A stretch of DNA of 64,000 nucleotides from an uncultured Gammaproteobacteria bacterium (GTDB taxonomy: Bacteria > Pseudomonadota > Gammaproteobacteria > UBA6429 > Thiohalophilaceae), in contig CAJYAN010000007.1 of assembly GCA_913064945.1 (NCBI GenBank), positions 62,001-126,000 on the forward strand, written 5' to 3'. Under the pieces are notes generated by a model. That model did not search any database, was not told the origin of the DNA, and saw only the letters and a program-made list of their open reading frames with translations. The translations under genes and the position numbers were made by a program. Position 1 is the first letter of the stretch. Each line of letters opens with the position of its first letter. Below, in pieces: positions 6,407-28,837 of the stretch.

Positions 6407-8107
6407 ATGCAACCTGTTGAACCGTTTCTCCACACCCCCCGAATTGCCTATTTTACCATGGAGATTGCGCTACGCAGTGAAATCCCTACCTATGCGGGTG
6501 GTCTTGGCGTACTGGCAGGCGACACCATGCGAACGGCAGCCGACATGGACATGCCCATGGTAGCCGTCAGTCTGGTAAGCCGCGCCGGTTACTTCCAGCA
6601 AAGTATCGATAACGAGGGACAACAGCTTGAGTCCCCACAAGCCTGGGATCCTGCACAGTGGGCCACAAAGGTGGAAGCTATGATCGCGGTCGACCTGGGA
6701 AGTCGAGTCGTCTGGGTTGGCGGCTGGCTGTATATCATGCAGAGTCAGACCGGTGGACGCCAGCCGGTGATTCTGCTGGATACGGATCTCAGTGAAAACA
6801 GCGCCGAAGACCGTACGATTACCCATTACCTCTATGGTGGCGATGAACGTTATCGATTTAAGCAGGAGGCGATACTGGGGATTGGCGGGCTGCGCATGTT
6901 ACAGGCGCTGGGTTTTGAGATTCGCCAATACCATCTCAATGAAGGTCACTCCGCGCTTTTAGGGATAGAGTTATTGCGGCGTTATGCCTTTCCTGCGGAA
7001 GATTTGCGAGCAGGTGAGTCAGCCTACGATATTCCTCGAGTTCGCGAGGTCTGTAATTTTACCACGCATACACCGATCGAAGCTGGACATGATAAATTTT
7101 CCTATGAACTGGTCGAGGAAGTTATCGACGACATTATCGATAAGCCGGTATTACACCGTCTCGGTGGCGAGGATCGACTCAATATGACGTTGTTGGCCCT
7201 GAACCTGAGTGAGTATGTCAACGGTGTAGCGAAACGCCATGCCGAGGTTTCATCCAAAATGTTTCCCGGTTACCGCGTGCGCTCGGTAACGAATGGCGTG
7301 CATCCGGCCACCTGGACGCATGAAAGTTTTGCCAAACTCTATGATACCCATTTGGCCGGTTGGTGCCATGAGCCGGAGATCCTGGTAAGGGCCGACCATG
7401 CTATTTCGCATGATGCACTCTGGCAGGCACACCTGGATGCCAAACAAACGTTAATCGATTACCTTAGTCAACATAGCAACCAGCAATTCGACCCGACAGT
7501 AGCAACGTTGGGTTTTGCGCGGCGGATGACGGCGTATAAACGTCCCGATTTATTGTTTACCGATCTCGACCGCCTGAAGGCTATGACAAAAGCGTTTCCT
7601 CTACAGCTAGTCATCGCCGGCAAGGCTCACCCGCGTGATGAGGTGGGCAAGGCATTGATTAAGGAAATTCATAACGTTGCCAAAAATTTGAATGACGACA
7701 TCAGGATGGTGTTTCTGCCTGATTACAATATGGATCTGGCCAAGTTACTGATCGCGGGTGTTGATGTCTGGTTAAATACGCCACTACGCCCACTGGAGGC
7801 CTCTGGCACCAGCGGTATGAAGGCGACCTTTAATGGCGTGCCGAATCTTAGTATTCTCGATGGCTGGTGGGTGGAAGGATGTGTCGAGGGAATCACCGGC
7901 TGGGCAATTGGTGATGGACCCGAAGGTTCCAATATCGGTGATGCCTTAGCACTATATGACAAACTGGAGCAGGTTGTTCTACCACTGTATTATCAGGATC
8001 GCAGTGGCTGGATTGATGTCATGAAAGGCGCTATTGCCAAGAATGCCTCGTATTTCAACAGCCACCGCATGATGCGTCGATACGCAGCCGAGGCCTACAT
8101 AAGATAG
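6407..8107 (+). CDS. glgP: Alpha-glucan phosphorylase (short GlgP type)
   Basis: Phosphorolyses terminal alpha-1,4-glucose units of glycogen or maltodextrin to glucose-1-phosphate with PLP as cofactor. The N-terminus has the pattern AYFTMEIALRSEIPTYAGGLGVLAGD of the archaeal/bacterial short phosphorylases; NEGHSALL and the PLP-lysine region GTSGMKATFNG with LDGWW follow. At about 566 residues it is shorter than the 800-residue animal/E. coli type, as is usual for this subfamily. The start at 6407 is preferred over the GTG at 6395, because AGTGAG lies seven bases before it and nothing resembles an SD before the GTG. No other glycogen genes are next to it. Confidence 0.88.
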   Translation: MQPVEPFLHTPRIAYFTMEIALRSEIPTYAGGLGVLAGDTMRTAADMDMPMVAVSLVSRAGYFQQSIDNEGQQLESPQAWDPAQWATKVEAMIAVDLGSRVVWVGGWLYIMQSQTGGRQPVILLDTDLSENSAEDRTITHYLYGGDERYRFKQEAILGIGGLRMLQALGFEIRQYHLNEGHSALLGIELLRRYAFPAEDLRAGESAYDIPRVREVCNFTTHTPIEAGHDKFSYELVEEVIDDIIDKPVLHRLGGEDRLNMTLLALNLSEYVNGVAKRHAEVSSKMFPGYRVRSVTNGVHPATWTHESFAKLYDTHLAGWCHEPEILVRADHAISHDALWQAHLDAKQTLIDYLSQHSNQQFDPTVATLGFARRMTAYKRPDLLFTDLDRLKAMTKAFPLQLVIAGKAHPRDEVGKALIKEIHNVAKNLNDDIRMVFLPDYNMDLAKLLIAGVDVWLNTPLRPLEASGTSGMKATFNGVPNLSILDGWWVEGCVEGITGWAIGDGPEGSNIGDALALYDKLEQVVLPLYYQDRSGWIDVMKGAIAKNASYFNSHRMMRRYAAEAYIR

Positions 8108-8194
8108 AGGTAATCTCTGTGATCAATATCAATGATGATATTTTATACTTGTTGAGTCATTAATTGGCAGGGTTAGCGGAGCAATTTACTGAGT

Positions 8195-9319
8195 ATGAAC
8201 TTTCTGATTTTTGTCACGGTATTCCTTCTCGTCATGGCACTGATGAATATCTATGTCTGGCGTCGATTTTTACGTGTCCTGAGCAAGAGTATTGCTTATT
8301 ATCTACTTATCATTCCGGTTACGCTAATGCTCGGAGATATCTTTTTTGTCATCGATGCAATATATGCGGTCATCCCCGATTCGCCCGTCCTGTATATGGT
8401 GACCAGTGCCTTTGTCGGCTTTACCTTTATGTTGTTTGTCGTCGCTGTGTTTTATGATCTGTCCGTGACTATCTCAAAGCGTGTCCCTTTTGATCAGTCA
8501 CGACGACGTAGCCTGAAACTTATTTTCGACGTGACGGTGCTGATTATGGCGTTTTCCTATTTACTTCGGGGATTGAGCCAGGGTTTAAAGTACCCCGCCG
8601 TCAATCGTGTTGAGGTAAAGGTAAAAGGGTTTCCACAGGATCAATTTTCGATTGTGCAGCTTACTGATGTGCACGTAGGTCGCACCATCAAGCGAGACTT
8701 TATTGAGTATCTGGTTGAGAAAACCAATCGACTGCAACCGGATCTGGTTGTCATTACCGGTGACCTGATCGATCTACCTGTGAGCCGCATCGAATATGAC
8801 CTGTATCCATTAAAGAACTTGAAGGCTCCTGTCTACTTCATTCTCGGCAATCACGAATACTTTCATGGCCCGGGTGAAGCCATTGCCTATCTTCGTGAGC
8901 TGGGTATTACACCATTGTTAAATGAAGCCGTTGTGATTGGTGACGGCGAGCAGCAGTTTAATCTGGTGGGTTTAAATGACCTGACCGGTCTGCGTAGCGG
9001 ACTCTTTCCTCCCGATGCAAGCTCCGCCTTTCAGTCGGTTGACCAGACGCTTGCCTGTATCGTGCTGGCCCATCAACCCAAAATGATTGAATCAATGGAC
9101 GATTATCGTTGTGACCTGATGCTCAGTGGCCATACCCATGGGGGGCAGATATTCCCGTTTGGCCTGCTGGTGATGATGGCCCAGCCCTATATCGCCGGGC
9201 TGCATCAACACAAAGAAAATCGGCAAATCTTTGTCAGTCGCGGTGCGGGTTACTGGGGGCCACCACTACGGGTCCTGGCGCCCAGTGAGATCAGTCATAT
9301 CAAGATTCGAAGTGCCTGA
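8195..9319 (+). CDS. Membrane-anchored calcineurin-like metallophosphoesterase
   Basis: A 374-residue protein with four N-terminal hydrophobic segments (about 1-20, 34-58, 66-88, 108-125) followed by a metallophosphoesterase domain. The metal-binding motifs are all present: LTDVHVG (D158, H160), GDLID near 189, GNHEY near 218 and GHTHGGQ near 312. It resembles the YkuE/YaeI group of membrane-linked phosphodiesterases; the substrate is unknown. It lies 87 bases after the phosphorylase on the same strand and converges on the BNR-repeat gene. Confidence 0.87.
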   Translation: MNFLIFVTVFLLVMALMNIYVWRRFLRVLSKSIAYYLLIIPVTLMLGDIFFVIDAIYAVIPDSPVLYMVTSAFVGFTFMLFVVAVFYDLSVTISKRVPFDQSRRRSLKLIFDVTVLIMAFSYLLRGLSQGLKYPAVNRVEVKVKGFPQDQFSIVQLTDVHVGRTIKRDFIEYLVEKTNRLQPDLVVITGDLIDLPVSRIEYDLYPLKNLKAPVYFILGNHEYFHGPGEAIAYLRELGITPLLNEAVVIGDGEQQFNLVGLNDLTGLRSGLFPPDASSAFQSVDQTLACIVLAHQPKMIESMDDYRCDLMLSGHTHGGQIFPFGLLVMMAQPYIAGLHQHKENRQIFVSRGAGYWGPPLRVLAPSEISHIKIRSA

Positions 9320-22916: not shown

Positions 22917-24329
22917 TCAGGTTAACGGTGGCCTCGTATCGTGCGAGGGGGTGATTCCTGAGCGAATAAGCTTTTTGCGGTTACCGACGACATCAAAGAT
23001 TAATCCGGTTAATGGATTGAATCTGGCAACCCTGAAGATCAGGCGGCGGATAGTGGTGGCCTTGACCCGCCGAGTCTCGTGTAGTTGTGGCAGAAAATAT
23101 ATCGCCGTCAGCCCACGCAGCAGGAACGAGCCAATAAAAAGATAATACAGGCTGCTTGGCCAGTGATGTTGCCAACCAAACAGACTCAGGTCTGCTGGCA
23201 AGTAACTGCCCAGCAAGCCGCCTAATAGCGCACCGAGGAAAATCCCGATACTGGCGATAACATTGTGGATGGCCATAAAGGTGGACCGCTTACCAGACGG
23301 TATCAGGTCAAACAGATAATTACCGGCACTCAGGGTAAATCCCGCCCAGATAATTCCACTAAAGGCCTGGGTACAGAGCAGATAATAAAAACTGGTTGAG
23401 AACAGCCACAAAAAAGGCACGAAGGGAATCAGACTGCCACAGGCCAGCAGGATAATACGATTCCCAAAGATGTCGGATATCCTGCCCCAGTAGGTCAGGG
23501 TCAGAAATTGCATCAGGACCGCTGCCGCCGAGCAACACATAAACTCGATATAGCTGAACTTTAGGTCGCGCAACAGGTATACGGAAAAAAACGGTGAAGC
23601 CAGCGCGACGGAAAATTGCATCAGACAAAAAAAGCCGACGAAACGGCTAAAGGGGGTGTGGCGTAATTGCCGCCAGCCGGTTTTGTCCAGCATGACTTCC
23701 AGGGCCGCAACGTGTCCTGGCGGGTCATACATCTGTTTTAGATGATAGACCGAGATAAGTCGAGATAAAAAGGCAAAGGCAAAGATCAGTAAAAAGCCGA
23801 TCTGGGTCGTGCCTGATTTTGAAAACAGGTTAAGTACGATGCCGGCGCTGACCAGGGCCAGAAACGACATCATGGAGGAGATACGTGTCCTCCGGGCAAA
23901 GTAACGGCCGCGTTTTTTTTCCGCGACTAATTCCCCCATCAGGCTGGACCATTGCGGGGCGACAAGATTACCGAAGGCATAAAATAAAATGACACAGCAA
24001 ATAAAGACTTCGACGGCATGCGCAGGGAAAACGAATGGTAAGACCGCCATGGGTACCCAGATCATGGCCTGCAAGAGGGCGCCACCGAGGATAATACTTT
24101 TGCGCTGGCCGGTCTTGTGGCCAAGCCAGGCCGAGAACAGTTGCGCAAACGAGGCTATCAGCGGTGGCACAGAGGCCAGAAAACTAATCTGTACTGTCGT
24201 CGCCTGCAAAAAAATCGCAAAGGCAGAGAAGTAACTCTCGCCACTGCCCGCCATGAGTGAATAGGCGGCACCATCCCGCACCGAGTGGCGCAGTGAGCTG
24301 TCTATTTTGGGGTCAGGAGAATAACGCAT
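22917..24329 (-). CDS. MFS transporter
   Basis: A 470-residue membrane protein with 11-12 hydrophobic segments. The loop LGHKTGQRKSIILGGA between the second and third helices is the MFS signature (G-x3-D/G-R/K-x-G-R-R/K). The centre carries a cytoplasmic loop near 205-230. The basic C-terminal tail of about 60 residues is unusual for a simple sugar carrier. It is 84 bases after the PLP decarboxylase gene on the same strand, which is downstream of a SET-domain gene; the three look like an operon, so a role in exporting the product of those enzymes is plausible. Substrate not known. Confidence 0.85.
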   Translation of the reverse strand: MRYSPDPKIDSSLRHSVRDGAAYSLMAGSGESYFSAFAIFLQATTVQISFLASVPPLIASFAQLFSAWLGHKTGQRKSIILGGALLQAMIWVPMAVLPFVFPAHAVEVFICCVILFYAFGNLVAPQWSSLMGELVAEKKRGRYFARRTRISSMMSFLALVSAGIVLNLFSKSGTTQIGFLLIFAFAFLSRLISVYHLKQMYDPPGHVAALEVMLDKTGWRQLRHTPFSRFVGFFCLMQFSVALASPFFSVYLLRDLKFSYIEFMCCSAAAVLMQFLTLTYWGRISDIFGNRIILLACGSLIPFVPFLWLFSTSFYYLLCTQAFSGIIWAGFTLSAGNYLFDLIPSGKRSTFMAIHNVIASIGIFLGALLGGLLGSYLPADLSLFGWQHHWPSSLYYLFIGSFLLRGLTAIYFLPQLHETRRVKATTIRRLIFRVARFNPLTGLIFDVVGNRKKLIRSGITPSHDTRPPLT

Positions 24330-24413
24330 GACGTTGAAGCGTTACATAGATAGCCGGGGTTGTCACTTGCTTAGCGCATATCGCGGTATTTCAGCTTGAA
24401 CGCTGGGCCAGAA

Positions 24414-25628
24414 CTAACTGAAGAGAAGAAATTCTTTAAATTCGCCACGCATACAATGGTTGGACGCCATTGATGATGAATAGGCACCGGCGTTCATCAG
24501 CACCAGGCCATCATCCTCTGCCAGCGGTGGCAGGTCGATGTCGTGATAGAAGATATCCAGTGCCTCATTGATATGGCCCGCGATGCTGACCCGTTGTGTT
24601 GCACCCGGTCTGGGCCGGGCTGGTAGCGGCAAAAAGGGTAGTCCATAGACAGCAGGTTCCAGGGCAATATTAAAGCCGGCATTAACGCCAACGAAGCATT
24701 TATCGCGCTTGGTCTCGATACTGTTGACTGTCAGTAACAGGATGCCGCTGTCCTTGACAAGATAGTCGCCGGGCTCGATTTCGAGTGTGACGGGTCGTGG
24801 CGCAAAATGCCGGGTCAGGATCTGAGCCCATTTTGGTAAATCCAGCGGCTTGTCCGTCGCCACATGTGGTACCCCCAGACCTCCGCCGACATTGACAATC
24901 TTAACGGTCTCGATCTGGTCAACAAACCAGAGGCACTCCTGGATGATGCCTTCCCAACAATCGAGTTCGGGGGTCAGGTAACCACAACCGGTGTGAAAGT
25001 GAATCTTGGTAATGTTCAGGTCATATTGCCGAGCGAGGGCAATGGCCTCGTGAAACTGTTCTTTATAGATACCGAACTTGGTGGTATTGGCGCCACTATA
25101 GTGCAGCTTGTCATTGTCTGCTCGACCAATGCCGATCCCTGGATTGACCCGGATACCAATGTCGCGGCCACGGCCCAGTTCACCCCATTTACGAATCGCG
25201 TGTAAGGAGTCGCAGTTCATGGACAGACCATCCAGGCGAGTCAGGCGTTGCAGGTCATTATTCGACAGGCTGGTATTGGTAAAAGAGATCTCGTCAGGTT
25301 GAAAGCCACAACTGATGGCGTGTTCGACCTCGTTAGGGGAACAGGCATCAATGCCGACCTTGCCCGTAGCCTTGAGATAGGTGAGCAGGGGGGCAAATCG
25401 ATTGGCCTTCATGGCATAGAGCAGTCGACTGCGGTCTTCGAGACCAGCAGCGGCGAGGGCCGCGTGCAGGCGATCAATATTCGCCGTCAGTCGACTGGCG
25501 CTATAAAAGAAGGCTGGCGTACCATGCCGGTCAGCCAGGCGAGAAACATCATGTCCAGCAAACATCAGACGACCCTCCCGGTAGCAAAGGTCCGTTCTTT
25601 GCCACCAGGAAGGGGTGGGGTCTGTCAT
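24414..25628 (-). CDS. Fold-III PLP decarboxylase, diaminopimelate/ornithine decarboxylase-like
   Basis: A 404-residue alanine-racemase-fold PLP enzyme. K74 in YAMKANRF is the Schiff-base lysine, HFHTGCGY and NVGGGLGVPH bind the cofactor phosphate, and MNAGAYSSSMASNHCMRGEF is the C-terminal active-site segment. Lysine DapDC usually has CESGD in the substrate-binding segment; here the corresponding region reads EIEPGDYLV, so the substrate may differ from meso-diaminopimelate. The start overlaps the stop of the upstream SET gene in ATGA, showing translational coupling. It could decarboxylate an amino acid or act as a racemase-like enzyme; the reaction is not settled. Confidence 0.85.
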   Translation of the reverse strand: MTDPTPSWWQRTDLCYREGRLMFAGHDVSRLADRHGTPAFFYSASRLTANIDRLHAALAAAGLEDRSRLLYAMKANRFAPLLTYLKATGKVGIDACSPNEVEHAISCGFQPDEISFTNTSLSNNDLQRLTRLDGLSMNCDSLHAIRKWGELGRGRDIGIRVNPGIGIGRADNDKLHYSGANTTKFGIYKEQFHEAIALARQYDLNITKIHFHTGCGYLTPELDCWEGIIQECLWFVDQIETVKIVNVGGGLGVPHVATDKPLDLPKWAQILTRHFAPRPVTLEIEPGDYLVKDSGILLLTVNSIETKRDKCFVGVNAGFNIALEPAVYGLPFLPLPARPRPGATQRVSIAGHINEALDIFYHDIDLPPLAEDDGLVLMNAGAYSSSMASNHCMRGEFKEFLLFS

Positions 25629-26098
25629 ACCGCGACGACCTTGTTAAGCATAAATTCCTGATATTGGGAATCGGTTTCATCGATGGCCTGTTTTTTACCG
25701 GTAATCCAGCCACGACAACGTTTGGAACCACAGGAACAGGGAAACTGTTTGTACAGCACATCTTCGGTCTGGGCATAATCCATTAACAAATAATCGCCGG
25801 CCTTGATCTTGCGGGTTGCGAATACCAGCATGCGCTTCATATCGAGGCGAATATTGGGTGCACAGGAATGCAGGAAGTAGCCAGAGAAATGGATATCGTA
25901 CAAATGCACCCCCGGTTTGATTTGCAGGGAGTGCTGGCGGATATCGTGAATGATCTCGCCATGAATTGCCGCGACAAGGTCACCCCGGGAAAAATCCTTA
26001 TGGGTGATAACACCAAATCCGGTTTTATCATCCTGTACAATTTCAAAGTCTTCTTGCTTCGGGTAAAGCGAGTTATCGGTGTACGTCTCTGGGTACAT
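25625..26098 (-). CDS. Small SET-domain methyltransferase
   Basis: A 157-residue protein built almost entirely of a SET domain: KTGFGV (25-30) for SAM binding, YFLHSCAPN (74-82) in place of the NHS motif, GDYLLMDYA (101-109) with the catalytic-type Tyr, and a post-SET-like zinc cluster CSCGSKRC (C121, C123, C128). Eukaryotic SET enzymes methylate protein lysines; bacterial members are few and mostly uncharacterised. AAGGAAG precedes the ATG. It is the first gene of an apparent SET-decarboxylase-MFS operon, so a small-molecule or a partner-enzyme lysine could be the substrate. Confidence 0.82.
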   Translation of the reverse strand: MYPETYTDNSLYPKQEDFEIVQDDKTGFGVITHKDFSRGDLVAAIHGEIIHDIRQHSLQIKPGVHLYDIHFSGYFLHSCAPNIRLDMKRMLVFATRKIKAGDYLLMDYAQTEDVLYKQFPCSCGSKRCRGWITGKKQAIDETDSQYQEFMLNKVVAV

Positions 26099-26632
26099 TG
26101 TTCACGGCTTCCTTTTGGGTTGGTAGATAAAAGGCAGGGTGATTGGCCATGCCGGGTAAATTTTGTGACTTATACAATCGATACGAGCATGCAGCAACAA
26201 TTAATTTTTTGGGAACAAATACAATGGTTTGCCAGCATGCGGGGAGGTGAGCCACGGCAAAATGATGTAAAAACCGATGTAATTGCTTTTACTGACTAAT
26301 TAAAAATAACGATTGTGATTAGCAAAATTATTGCATGTCATAAAACATAGCAGAGTGAGTAGAAGATTCCAGTGAGGCAGGTCTTAGAAGACAGACCGCT
26401 CAGGGTTAATGAATCGTTGCTCATTATACCCTTGTTACAGCCTGCAAATAAAAAATACCAGGCCAGGGATGGCGTGTGATTTTTCACCCGGTGTTGGGCT
26501 GAAATGGCAGTCAATTTAATAAAACGATTGTGTTGAGTTAAATTATTAATCGACTGCCGATTGACAGTCCTCTGGTGATTGCTGGAGGATGCGTTACGCC
26601 AAATTGCCTGCCCCTCATCGAGAAGTATCAAC
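26099..26632. other. Divergent intergenic region between SET and 2OG-oxygenase genes
   Basis: About 530 bases with no credible ORF, containing the promoters of both divergent units. One inverted repeat is listed separately. Confidence 0.4.
26506..26558. promoter_or_regulatory. Inverted repeat in the SET/2OG-oxygenase divergent region
   Basis: GGCAGTC (26506-26512) and GACTGCC (26552-26558) are exact reverse complements, and the inner A/T bases also pair. It lies about 75 bases before the oxygenase start. It might be an operator shared by both units or an RNA hairpin; inference only. Confidence 0.35.
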
Positions 26633-27277
26633 ATGACAGCAACGCTGCCTCCAATCATTGTGCCTAATGAGATCGACCCGTTCATTATCGCCAGTGTGCA
26701 TACGGCAGGCTGGTGTGTTGTAACAGATTATATCCCTGCTTTCGTGATTTCGACACTACGTGAGGAGTTACTTGAGCAATGGCATCAGGGTGATTTCAAG
26801 GCGGCGGGGATCGGTCGTGGCAGTGGCCAGGTTGTGGAAGCATCCATCCGTAGCGATCAGTTAAAATGGTTGAGTAGCGAAGACTTAACCCCGGCACAGA
26901 GTTATTACTGGCAGGCGATGAATGGTTTGCGCCAGCAACTAAATCAGCAATTATATTTGGGGTTGGTTGAATTCGAAGCCCATCTTTCCGTATATGCCTC
27001 GGGTTCATTCTATCAGCGACACTGTGATCAGTTTCGCGGCGTTGGCCTTCGTGAAGTAACAGTGATTTTGTATCTGAATGATGCATGGCAGGAAGAAGAT
27101 GGTGGCCAACTGCTACTCTATAAAGATATGGACACGCCTCAGATATTGGATCGGATATCCCCCTGTGCTGGTCAATTAGTAGTATTTTTGAGTGCCGAAT
27201 TTCCGCACGAGGTCCTGCCCGCCAGACGGCAGCGTTTGAGCCTTACCGGCTGGTTTAAAAAGCGCGCTATCGACTAA
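26633..27277 (+). CDS. 2-oxoglutarate/Fe(II)-dependent oxygenase
   Basis: A 214-residue prolyl-4-hydroxylase-type dioxygenase. The iron site is the H-x-D of RHCDQFRG and the distal His of FPHEVLP; R in RRQRLSLTGWF is the 2OG-carboxylate ligand. SVYASGSFYQRH and LYLNDAWQEEDGGQL are typical of the family. GAGAAG lies seven bases before ATG 26633; the frame opens at a TTG further upstream without an SD. Substrate unknown; it is divergent from the SET-decarboxylase-MFS operon and could belong to the same pathway. Confidence 0.88.
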   Translation: MTATLPPIIVPNEIDPFIIASVHTAGWCVVTDYIPAFVISTLREELLEQWHQGDFKAAGIGRGSGQVVEASIRSDQLKWLSSEDLTPAQSYYWQAMNGLRQQLNQQLYLGLVEFEAHLSVYASGSFYQRHCDQFRGVGLREVTVILYLNDAWQEEDGGQLLLYKDMDTPQILDRISPCAGQLVVFLSAEFPHEVLPARRQRLSLTGWFKKRAID

Positions 27278-27535: not shown

Positions 27536-27751
27536 TTACTTCTTCTTGGCATGTGCCTTTTTGGCAGCGGCCTTACACTCTTTGACGAAAGCTCTGATTT
27601 CTTTCTTGTCTTTCAGACCTTTTGTCTTTGCCTGGTGTTTACAGCTAACTGGTTTCGTTGCCTTGGCTTCATTTGCCATCGCATTGGTTTGCAGACCGGC
27701 ACCAAGTAAAATCATGCTGGACAATACAGCAGTAATGATTGTCTTTTTCAT
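27536..27751 (-). CDS. PsiF-repeat-like small secreted protein
   Basis: A 71-residue protein with a signal peptide (MKKTIITAV to MANEA) and one Cys-x-n-Cys unit, SCKHQAKTKGLKDKKE...KECKAAAKK, similar to the PsiF repeat (C-x5-A-x2-L-K-G-x-F-x3-C). The tail is very lysine- and alanine-rich. The start is ATG 27751, with AGGAG and AAAGG upstream; the longer frame begins before the SD. Function is unknown; E. coli PsiF is phosphate-starvation inducible. Confidence 0.72.
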   Translation of the reverse strand: MKKTIITAVLSSMILLGAGLQTNAMANEAKATKPVSCKHQAKTKGLKDKKEIRAFVKECKAAAKKAHAKKK

Positions 27752-27889: not shown

Positions 27890-28837
27890 CTATCCGGTGA
27901 CGCCAATCCAGAAACCGATATTCTTGTCAATAAATTCTTCATACGACATATAGTGAGATCCGTCACAGGAAAAGGTTAAGCTGATCATGCCATTAAAAAT
28001 GTTAATTGATGCCGAGCGCAGATAAATCGTTTCATCTGTAAAACGAAGTTGCTTCAGATTCTTCAAGATGGGGCGGATGGCATTTTTGGGGATTTGGGCA
28101 TCAGTGGGATAAGGGCGAACAGGATACGCCAGACAGATATCGGGGTCAGAAAGTTCCTCGTGCTGGAGCAGTCGATATCGATATGGGTCATCCATTAACC
28201 AGATGGTGGCACGACTGCTGGAAAAATGCAGGACACACTGGAACATGCCGTGGGCCTGTATCAGCTCACGGAGTATGGACATGGCCTGATCAATATCCTT
28301 GTCCAGGAGGCTATCGACGCGGGTCTGCTGAAACAGGGTGCCACGAATAGCGGCATCGCCCTTTATCTGCAACCACTTTTTTGGCTCGTCATATAATTCA
28401 GCCGTGACCGGCAGATTGCGTAAGTCAAAATCGGCACCGACAAAGCCCAGTACGGCATCATAATGTTTGACCAGCTGCAAGGCGGTGAGAGAAGGGCGTT
28501 GTACGCGCAGACTGATATAAGCCTCAGACAACAGAAAGCCACTGGCGGGTACGGCCTCTTTCATATAGGGCCGTTGTGAACGATCACGACCAAAGTGCTC
28601 AGGTAACAGACCTGAGTGCGTAATATTATCGGTAATCTGCATACCCTGGGTGGTGAGTGCATAGAGAAAGGTGCAGTTGGGCACATCGTTGATGTGCTGC
28701 ATCAGGATATCGTCCAGGGCTTCACGGTCGGGCCAGTGTGGCGCGCAGGCTTCAGCGAGCATCGCCAGAGGTTCACTGAGTGTTGATTCGAGGGCATTGC
28801 GTTGTTTTTGAACAATTTGTTTTAAAGTTAATTTCAT
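27890..28837 (-). CDS. Cache/PDC-like sensor protein of unknown function
   Basis: A 315-residue protein without a signal peptide or transmembrane segment. Residues about 55-165 resemble a PDC/Cache ligand-sensing fold (FLYALTTQGMQITDNI, GRDRSQRPYMKEA, ALQLVKHYDAVLGFVGADFDLRNLP). Cache domains are normally extracytoplasmic, so a soluble version is unusual. The C-terminal region (about 253-310), with LKNLKQLR and FSCDGSHYMSYEEF, matches by eye the tail of the protein at 35264. No partner kinase or receptor is adjacent. Confidence 0.7.
   Translation of the reverse strand: MKLTLKQIVQKQRNALESTLSEPLAMLAEACAPHWPDREALDDILMQHINDVPNCTFLYALTTQGMQITDNITHSGLLPEHFGRDRSQRPYMKEAVPASGFLLSEAYISLRVQRPSLTALQLVKHYDAVLGFVGADFDLRNLPVTAELYDEPKKWLQIKGDAAIRGTLFQQTRVDSLLDKDIDQAMSILRELIQAHGMFQCVLHFSSSRATIWLMDDPYRYRLLQHEELSDPDICLAYPVRPYPTDAQIPKNAIRPILKNLKQLRFTDETIYLRSASINIFNGMISLTFSCDGSHYMSYEEFIDKNIGFWIGVTG

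What the first reader, a model, noticed from the sequence alone, without database searches (positions are those of the whole stretch)
22917..27277. SET-domain methyltransferase + PLP decarboxylase + MFS transporter operon, divergent from a 2OG-Fe(II) oxygenase
Seen: three minus-strand genes, with an ATGA overlap between a compact SET protein (with a CxC...C post-SET-like cluster) and a fold-III PLP decarboxylase, then an MFS transporter 84 bases on; a 2OG oxygenase is divergent across a region with an inverted repeat. Known: bacterial SET enzymes are rare and mostly lack known substrates, and diaminopimelate decarboxylases normally keep CESGD, which here reads EPGD. Inference: a small pathway making a decarboxylated, methylated, possibly hydroxylated amine or amino acid that is exported, or a SET enzyme that modifies the decarboxylase.
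Basis: partly seen in the sequence, partly recalled or inferred. Interest (0 to 1): 0.78.

Follow-up and report, generated by a model that had tools for sequence, protein, structure and literature searches.

The report
Two-gene methionine S-methylation/decarboxylation pathway
A sediment-type bacterium carries a tight pair of genes that most likely methylates the sulfur of methionine and then removes its carboxyl group, the first two steps of one route to the ocean sulfur compound DMSP, and the same pair turns up across sulfate-reducing and other bacteria not known to make such compounds.

Summary
The genes are real. The SET protein is a relative of BurB, the SET-domain methionine S-methyltransferase of Burkholderia (49% identical, PDB 9l4t), not a likely protein-lysine methyltransferase. 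The decarboxylase is not LysA, which lies elsewhere in the genome. It belongs to the BurI clade (S-methylmethionine decarboxylase), split from LysA with 100/100 support and marked by EPG[DET] and [NH]INE[AS]LD in place of EPGR and CESGD. Likely chemistry: Met to S-methylmethionine to 3-dimethylsulfoniopropylamine (DMSP-amine). In 80 loci from public genomes the decarboxylase adjoins the SET gene in 73, and a decarboxylase is fused to it in one more. Eleven loci (sulfate reducers, Thiorhodococcus) add a BurD-type transaminase, eight also a BurE-type dehydrogenase, which ties the family to DMSP synthesis. The window genome has no close homologue of those two, so it stops at DMSP-amine or uses general enzymes. 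The MFS and 2OG oxygenase genes are not conserved neighbours. A 2026 review says BurB is reported exclusively from B. thailandensis; here it is in 39 of 258 genomes of one sulfate-reducer class. The case rests on homology, gene order and phylogeny; no enzyme was assayed.

The parts
25625..26098 (-). BurB-like SET-domain methionine S-methyltransferase, 157 aa
   Evidence: Pfam SET; PDB BurB 9l4t E 6.5e-38, 49% identity; BurB site residues R70, H72, S88, H93, Y124 and V130 identical, T73 to S, R133 to K; top fold match BurB-SMM-SAM 9l4v
24414..25628 (-). BurI-like fold-III PLP decarboxylase (S-methylmethionine decarboxylase), 404 aa
   Evidence: Below the lysA equivalog cut-off (222.6 against 297.9); in a 68-row clade with a BurI-like protein, 100/100, apart from LysA; 48-49% to the BurI-like protein, 28% to its own LysA
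25625..25628 (-). ATGA stop/start overlap joining the SET and decarboxylase genes
   Evidence: Sequence; ATGA also read at the same place in relatives L027, L028 and L030
25919..25939 (-). RQHSLQI motif of the SET protein (aa 54-60), BurB-type substrate and SAM site (BurB R70, H72, T73)
   Evidence: H[ST]LQ in 79 of 80 relatives; absent from the genome's other SET protein and from five weakly similar SET loci
25715..25738 (-). Post-SET CxC....C cluster (C121, C123, C128)
   Evidence: Invariant in 22 aligned relatives and in BurB
24765..24776 (-). EPGD motif (aa 285-288), EPGR in LysA
   Evidence: EPG[DET] in 72 of 73 members read, ESGD in one; EPGR, ESGR or ELGR in all 14 other decarboxylases
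24555..24575 (-). HINEALD motif (aa 352-358), at the CESGD site of LysA
   Evidence: [NH]INE[AS][LI]D in all 71 members read; Cys-containing motif in all 14 other decarboxylases
22917..24329 (-). MFS transporter, 84 bp downstream; membership in the pathway uncertain
   Evidence: Pfam MFS_1; homologue near the pair in only 1 of 80 loci (L055, 37%)
26633..27277 (+). Divergent 2OG-Fe(II) oxygenase; probably not part of the pathway
   Evidence: Pfam 2OG-FeII_Oxy_3; homologue near the pair in 2 of 80 loci (L030, L037; 35-37%)

Best explanation
The SET protein transfers a methyl group from SAM to the sulfur of free methionine, giving S-methylmethionine (SMM). The PLP decarboxylase removes the carboxyl group of SMM, giving 3-dimethylsulfoniopropylamine (DMSP-amine). 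These are steps 1 and 2 of the methylation route to DMSP. In the full-operon relatives a class III aminotransferase and an aldehyde dehydrogenase then make DMSP. In the window organism, as in the pair-only genomes sampled, no close homologue of the aminotransferase was found, so the amine is either the product or is oxidised by general enzymes. Shown here: homology, clade membership, site conservation, conserved pairing. Inferred: the substrates and products of these particular proteins, and the end product.
For: SET: BurB is the best solved relative and best fold match; BurB makes SMM from Met with SAM (PMC7496086; PMC12542666); residue conservation. Decarboxylase: in one clade with a BurI-like protein found 18 kb from a burB-like gene in B. 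ubonensis; a burI deletion accumulates SMM (PMC7496086). Linkage: 73 of 80 adjacent plus one fusion; SET and decarboxylase distances correlate, r 0.87, best of 1000 permutations 0.12. Full operons: aminotransferase and dehydrogenase 52-58% identical to those beside the SET gene in Burkholderiaceae bur-like clusters, some with metK and HcyBio. LysA is present separately.
Against: No enzyme of the pair-only clade has been assayed. BurB R42, A44, M132 and H138 are T, F, Y and S here; some of these contacts are main-chain. Some genomes hold two SET copies, so the pair-only clade could have shifted in substrate. The own genome's nearest aminotransferase is BioA and its nearest aldehyde dehydrogenases are SSADH-like and MMSDH, so a complete DMSP route is not evident.
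Confidence: 0.82

Rival explanations
1. Same two steps, but DMSP is the end product, because non-dedicated aminotransferases or amine oxidases and aldehyde dehydrogenases finish the route. (This refines the best explanation rather than excluding it.)
For: B. thailandensis burD and burE deletions still make the DMSP-derived product, at reduced levels (PMC7496086). The window genome has a BCCT betaine-type transporter.
Against: No close BurD or BurE homologue in the window genome (best about 30%, BioA and SSADH/MMSDH types), and no close homologue of the operon aminotransferase in the 12 pair-only genomes tested (best 25-41%).
Confidence: 0.45
2. The pair acts on another sulfur or basic amino acid: the clade changed substrate after splitting from BurB/BurI.
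For: Pair-only clade is separate from the full-operon groups in the tree (97/99); some SAM/Met-contact residues differ from BurB; one genome has both types.
Against: Substrate-motif residues shared with BurB and full-operon proteins; same decarboxylase signature as the BurI-like protein.
Confidence: 0.12
3. The SET enzyme is a protein-lysine methyltransferase that modifies the decarboxylase or a ribosomal protein.
For: SET fold with post-SET cysteines resembling MLL and SETD2; overlap with the decarboxylase gene.
Against: Much closer to BurB than to any histone enzyme (6.5e-38 against 2.8e-8); neighbours in other genomes are mostly enzymes of small-molecule metabolism; Pandoraea and bur-type loci hold the SET gene with no adjacent decarboxylase.
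Confidence: 0.03
4. All four genes form one pathway: the amine is hydroxylated by the 2OG oxygenase and exported by the MFS protein.
For: MFS is 84 bp downstream on the same strand with no terminator-like site in the gap; oxygenase homologue near the pair in L030 and L037.
Against: MFS homologue in 1 and oxygenase homologue in 2 of 80 loci; oxygenase is divergently transcribed.
Confidence: 0.1

Closest known systems
BurB (Burkholderia thailandensis SET-domain methionine S-methyltransferase; PDB 9l4t, 9l4v)
   Same: Single-domain SET fold, post-SET cysteines, H[ST]LQ site, active-site Tyr and Ser, 49% identity
   Different: burB lies in an NRPS-PKS cluster making malleicyprol; here the gene is in a stand-alone pair with the decarboxylase. 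R42, A44, M132 and H138 of BurB are replaced
BurI (S-methylmethionine decarboxylase of the bur cluster)
   Same: Same decarboxylase clade and signature motifs as the BurI-like protein of B. ubonensis (48-49% identity)
   Different: In B. ubonensis the two genes are about 18 kb apart; here they overlap by four bases
LysA, diaminopimelate decarboxylase
   Same: Fold-III PLP decarboxylase, two Pfam domains, PLP lysine in YAMKAN
   Different: EPGR and CESGD both replaced, below the lysA cut-off, separate clade, true LysA present elsewhere in the genome
MmtN methionine S-methyltransferase route to DMSP
   Same: Same first reaction, Met to SMM
   Different: The BurB paper finds no significant sequence similarity between MmtN and BurB (PMC12542666)

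Membership tests
BurB-type methionine S-methyltransferase | Closer to BurB than to other SET proteins | tested here: met
   Best PDB match 6.5e-38, next 2.8e-8; top fold match
BurB-type methionine S-methyltransferase | BurB substrate and SAM site residues kept | tested here: met
   R70, H72, S88, H93, Y124, V130 identical; T73S and R133K conservative; R42, A44, M132, H138 differ. Met for most, not all, residues
BurB-type methionine S-methyltransferase | Converts Met and SAM to SMM | not testable with these tools
   Needs an enzyme assay
BurI-type SMM decarboxylase | Groups with BurI, apart from LysA | tested here: met
   100/100 branch; BurI represented by the B. ubonensis homologue only
BurI-type SMM decarboxylase | Decarboxylates SMM | not testable with these tools
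   Needs an enzyme assay
Complete DMSP methylation pathway (BurB, BurI, BurD, BurE) | Dedicated aminotransferase and aldehyde dehydrogenase present | tested here: not met
   Best own-genome matches about 30%: BioA, SSADH-like and MMSDH. Met in relatives such as L080, L089 and L079
LysA diaminopimelate decarboxylase | EPGR and CESGD motifs, score over the lysA cut-off | tested here: not met
   EPGD and HINEALD; 222.6 against 297.9 bits
Histone-type SET lysine methyltransferase | Protein lysine substrate | not testable with these tools
   Sequence, fold ranking and neighbours argue against it

The most novel reading that the evidence does not exclude
The stand-alone SET-decarboxylase pair makes DMSP-amine (3-dimethylsulfoniopropylamine) as its end product, a sulfonium amine used by many sediment bacteria, including sulfate reducers and cable bacteria, for stress protection or another purpose not yet described.
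Probability: 0.35. Interest if true: 0.82.

Novelty: new variant of a known kind. Interest (0 to 1): 0.72.

Why it matters
BurB is described in a 2026 review as reported exclusively from B. thailandensis, and burB as found only in a narrow range of taxa (PMC13360808). A 2025 study of anoxic saltmarsh sediment found dsyB as the only known DMSP synthesis gene and leaves open that novel DMSP synthesis genes exist in diverse bacteria there (PMC12596276). This family fits that gap. It is present in 39 of 258 genomes of one sulfate-reducer class, and several isolates (Desulfobacter vibrioformis, Desulfatibacillum alkenivorans, Thiorhodococcus drewsii) carry all four bur-type genes together. DMSP production by sulfate reducers becomes directly testable in culture collection strains. 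The family also helps to study how a SET domain came to methylate a free amino acid.

Tried and rejected
LysA as the identity of the decarboxylase: rejected on motifs, cut-off, tree and a separate LysA. MFS and oxygenase as conserved members: not supported. Dedicated BurD/BurE homologues elsewhere in the window genome: not found. The SET gene on contig C11 as a second copy: it is a different SET protein without H[ST]LQ. Streptomyces mobaraensis as a yardstick: not used, because papers differ on whether its methyltransferase is BurB-like or MmtN. The bur clusters of B. pseudomallei/mallei were not sought or used; B. ubonensis and Paraburkholderia loci from the general scan served instead. L106's genome is not held, so its decarboxylase could not be looked up. 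L120 gave a wrong-frame extraction and was left out of the tree. A family search failed on a wrong strand and was repeated. Paper searches for BurB in Desulfobulbus gave only unrelated hits.

Full report
Observation. The SET gene (25625-26098, minus) overlaps the decarboxylase gene (24414-25628, minus) by ATGA, and the MFS gene follows after 84 bases. The oxygenase is divergent, with an in-frame ATG at 26633. Pfam agrees with all four family names. One statement is wrong: EPGD is the counterpart of EPGR in LysA, and the CESGD site reads HINEALD. The inverted repeat is weak.

The SET protein. Its best solved relative is BurB (9l4t, E 6.5e-38), far ahead of histone enzymes (2.8e-8), at 49% identity. 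BurB methylates free methionine to S-methylmethionine with SAM and does not accept MTHB or MMPA (PMC12542666; PMC7496086). The paper's site residues map onto the window protein as R70=R54, H72=H56, T73=S57, S88=S72, H93=H77, Y124=Y108, V130=V114 and R133=K117; R42, A44, M132 and H138 are T, F, Y and S. H72, H93 and Y124 are the same in all 80 relatives read. The H[ST]LQ motif is in 79 of 80 relatives, and absent from the genome's other SET protein and from five weakly similar SET loci. A predicted structure (mean pLDDT 76) matches BurB-SMM-SAM and BurB-Met first, though with about 5 A rmsd.

The decarboxylase. It scores 222.6 bits against the lysA model, below the 297.9 cut-off, and a true LysA (542 bits) lies on another contig. 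In a tree of 82 fold-III decarboxylases it falls in a clade of 68 that holds the BurI-like protein of B. ubonensis and the full-operon proteins, separated from LysA and others by a 100/100 branch. That BurI-like gene lies 18 kb from the burB-like gene on the same contig. In this clade EPGR is replaced by EPG[DET] (72 of 73; ESGD once) and CESGD by [NH]INE[AS][LI]D (71 of 71), while all 14 other decarboxylases keep R and a Cys at these sites. Those motifs are associated with substrate binding in LysA (PMC6986272). The change from Arg to an acidic residue would suit a positively charged sulfonium side chain; that is inference.

Linkage. One scan of public genomes with the SET family found 122 encoding stretches, of which 80 were kept. 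In 73 a homologous decarboxylase is adjacent on the same strand. In one more (L098, an alphaproteobacterium) the SET domain is fused to a decarboxylase of another subfamily. The six exceptions are Pirellula (beside phosphonate-type genes), three Pandoraea (beside a Cys/Met-metabolism PLP enzyme), and B. ubonensis and Paraburkholderia (bur-like clusters). Gene order varies (SET first or decarboxylase first), yet the two stay together, and their distance matrices agree (r 0.87, best of 1000 permutations 0.12).

Full operons. Eleven loci add a class III aminotransferase, eight of these also an aldehyde dehydrogenase, and seven metK: Desulfobacter, Desulfobacula, Desulfatibacillum, Desulfosarcina, Desulfopila, Desulforhopalus, Desulfobulbus rhabdoformis, two Thiorhodococcus and two further MAGs. 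The aminotransferase and dehydrogenase are 52-58% identical to those beside the SET gene in the Burkholderiaceae bur-like clusters, whose counterparts BurD and BurE are the transaminase and dehydrogenase of the proposed DMSP route in B. thailandensis. This is the strongest link between the family and DMSP.

The window organism. Its closest aminotransferase is BioA and its closest aldehyde dehydrogenases are SSADH-like and MMSDH. Twelve pair-only genomes also lack a close homologue of the operon aminotransferase, their best matches being 25-41% against 61% or more in full-operon genomes. The pair therefore ends at DMSP-amine, or general enzymes finish the route, as burD and burE deletions in B. 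thailandensis suggest is possible. The MFS and oxygenase genes have homologues near the pair in one and two of 80 loci.

Distribution. The SET family is in 5 of 369 gammaproteobacterial genomes at 1e-20, in 7 of 37 genomes of the window's family including its own (strong matches), and in 39 of 258 genomes of the class of Desulfopila sp. IMCC35008.

Novelty. BurB and its reaction are known. What appears new, within the papers that could be searched, is the stand-alone pair, the wide distribution, and the four-gene operons in sulfate reducers and purple sulfur bacteria. Subscription papers and preprints could not be searched, so earlier reports may exist.

Noticed in passing
L098:5852-7513: Natural fusion of an ODC-type PLP decarboxylase and a BurB-like SET domain in one 553-aa ORF (alphaproteobacterium MAG); the decarboxylase half keeps EPGR and CDSND, so it is from another subfamily.
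   Followed up: partly
L044:6983-11659: Pirellula MAG with a BurB-like SET gene beside PEP mutase, a TPP enzyme and a class V aminotransferase, which looks like a phosphonate cluster; no decarboxylase of this family nearby.
   Followed up: partly
L100, L101, L105 around 6900-8660: Pandoraea: the SET gene is followed directly by a Cys/Met-metabolism PLP enzyme (PF01053, tested in L101), which could act on SMM.
   Followed up: partly
L061:3399-5102 and L077:5530-10477: Desulfobulbus rhabdoformis has both a pair-only copy, whose decarboxylase reads in two pieces, and a full-operon copy.
   Followed up: partly
L088:3978-11468: Desulfobacula full operon with metK and a homocysteine-biosynthesis gene (PF01837) upstream of SET, decarboxylase, aminotransferase and dehydrogenase.
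   Followed up: partly
window 27536-27751 (-): Small 71-aa ORF with a signal-like N terminus and a Lys-rich tail, between the oxygenase and the 315-aa ORF; not identified.
   Followed up: no
window 27890-28837 (-): 315-aa ORF with no Pfam or NCBIfam match at 1e-3.
   Followed up: no
L145:8016-10860: In the window genome a BCCT betaine-type transporter gene is convergent with bioA.
   Followed up: partly
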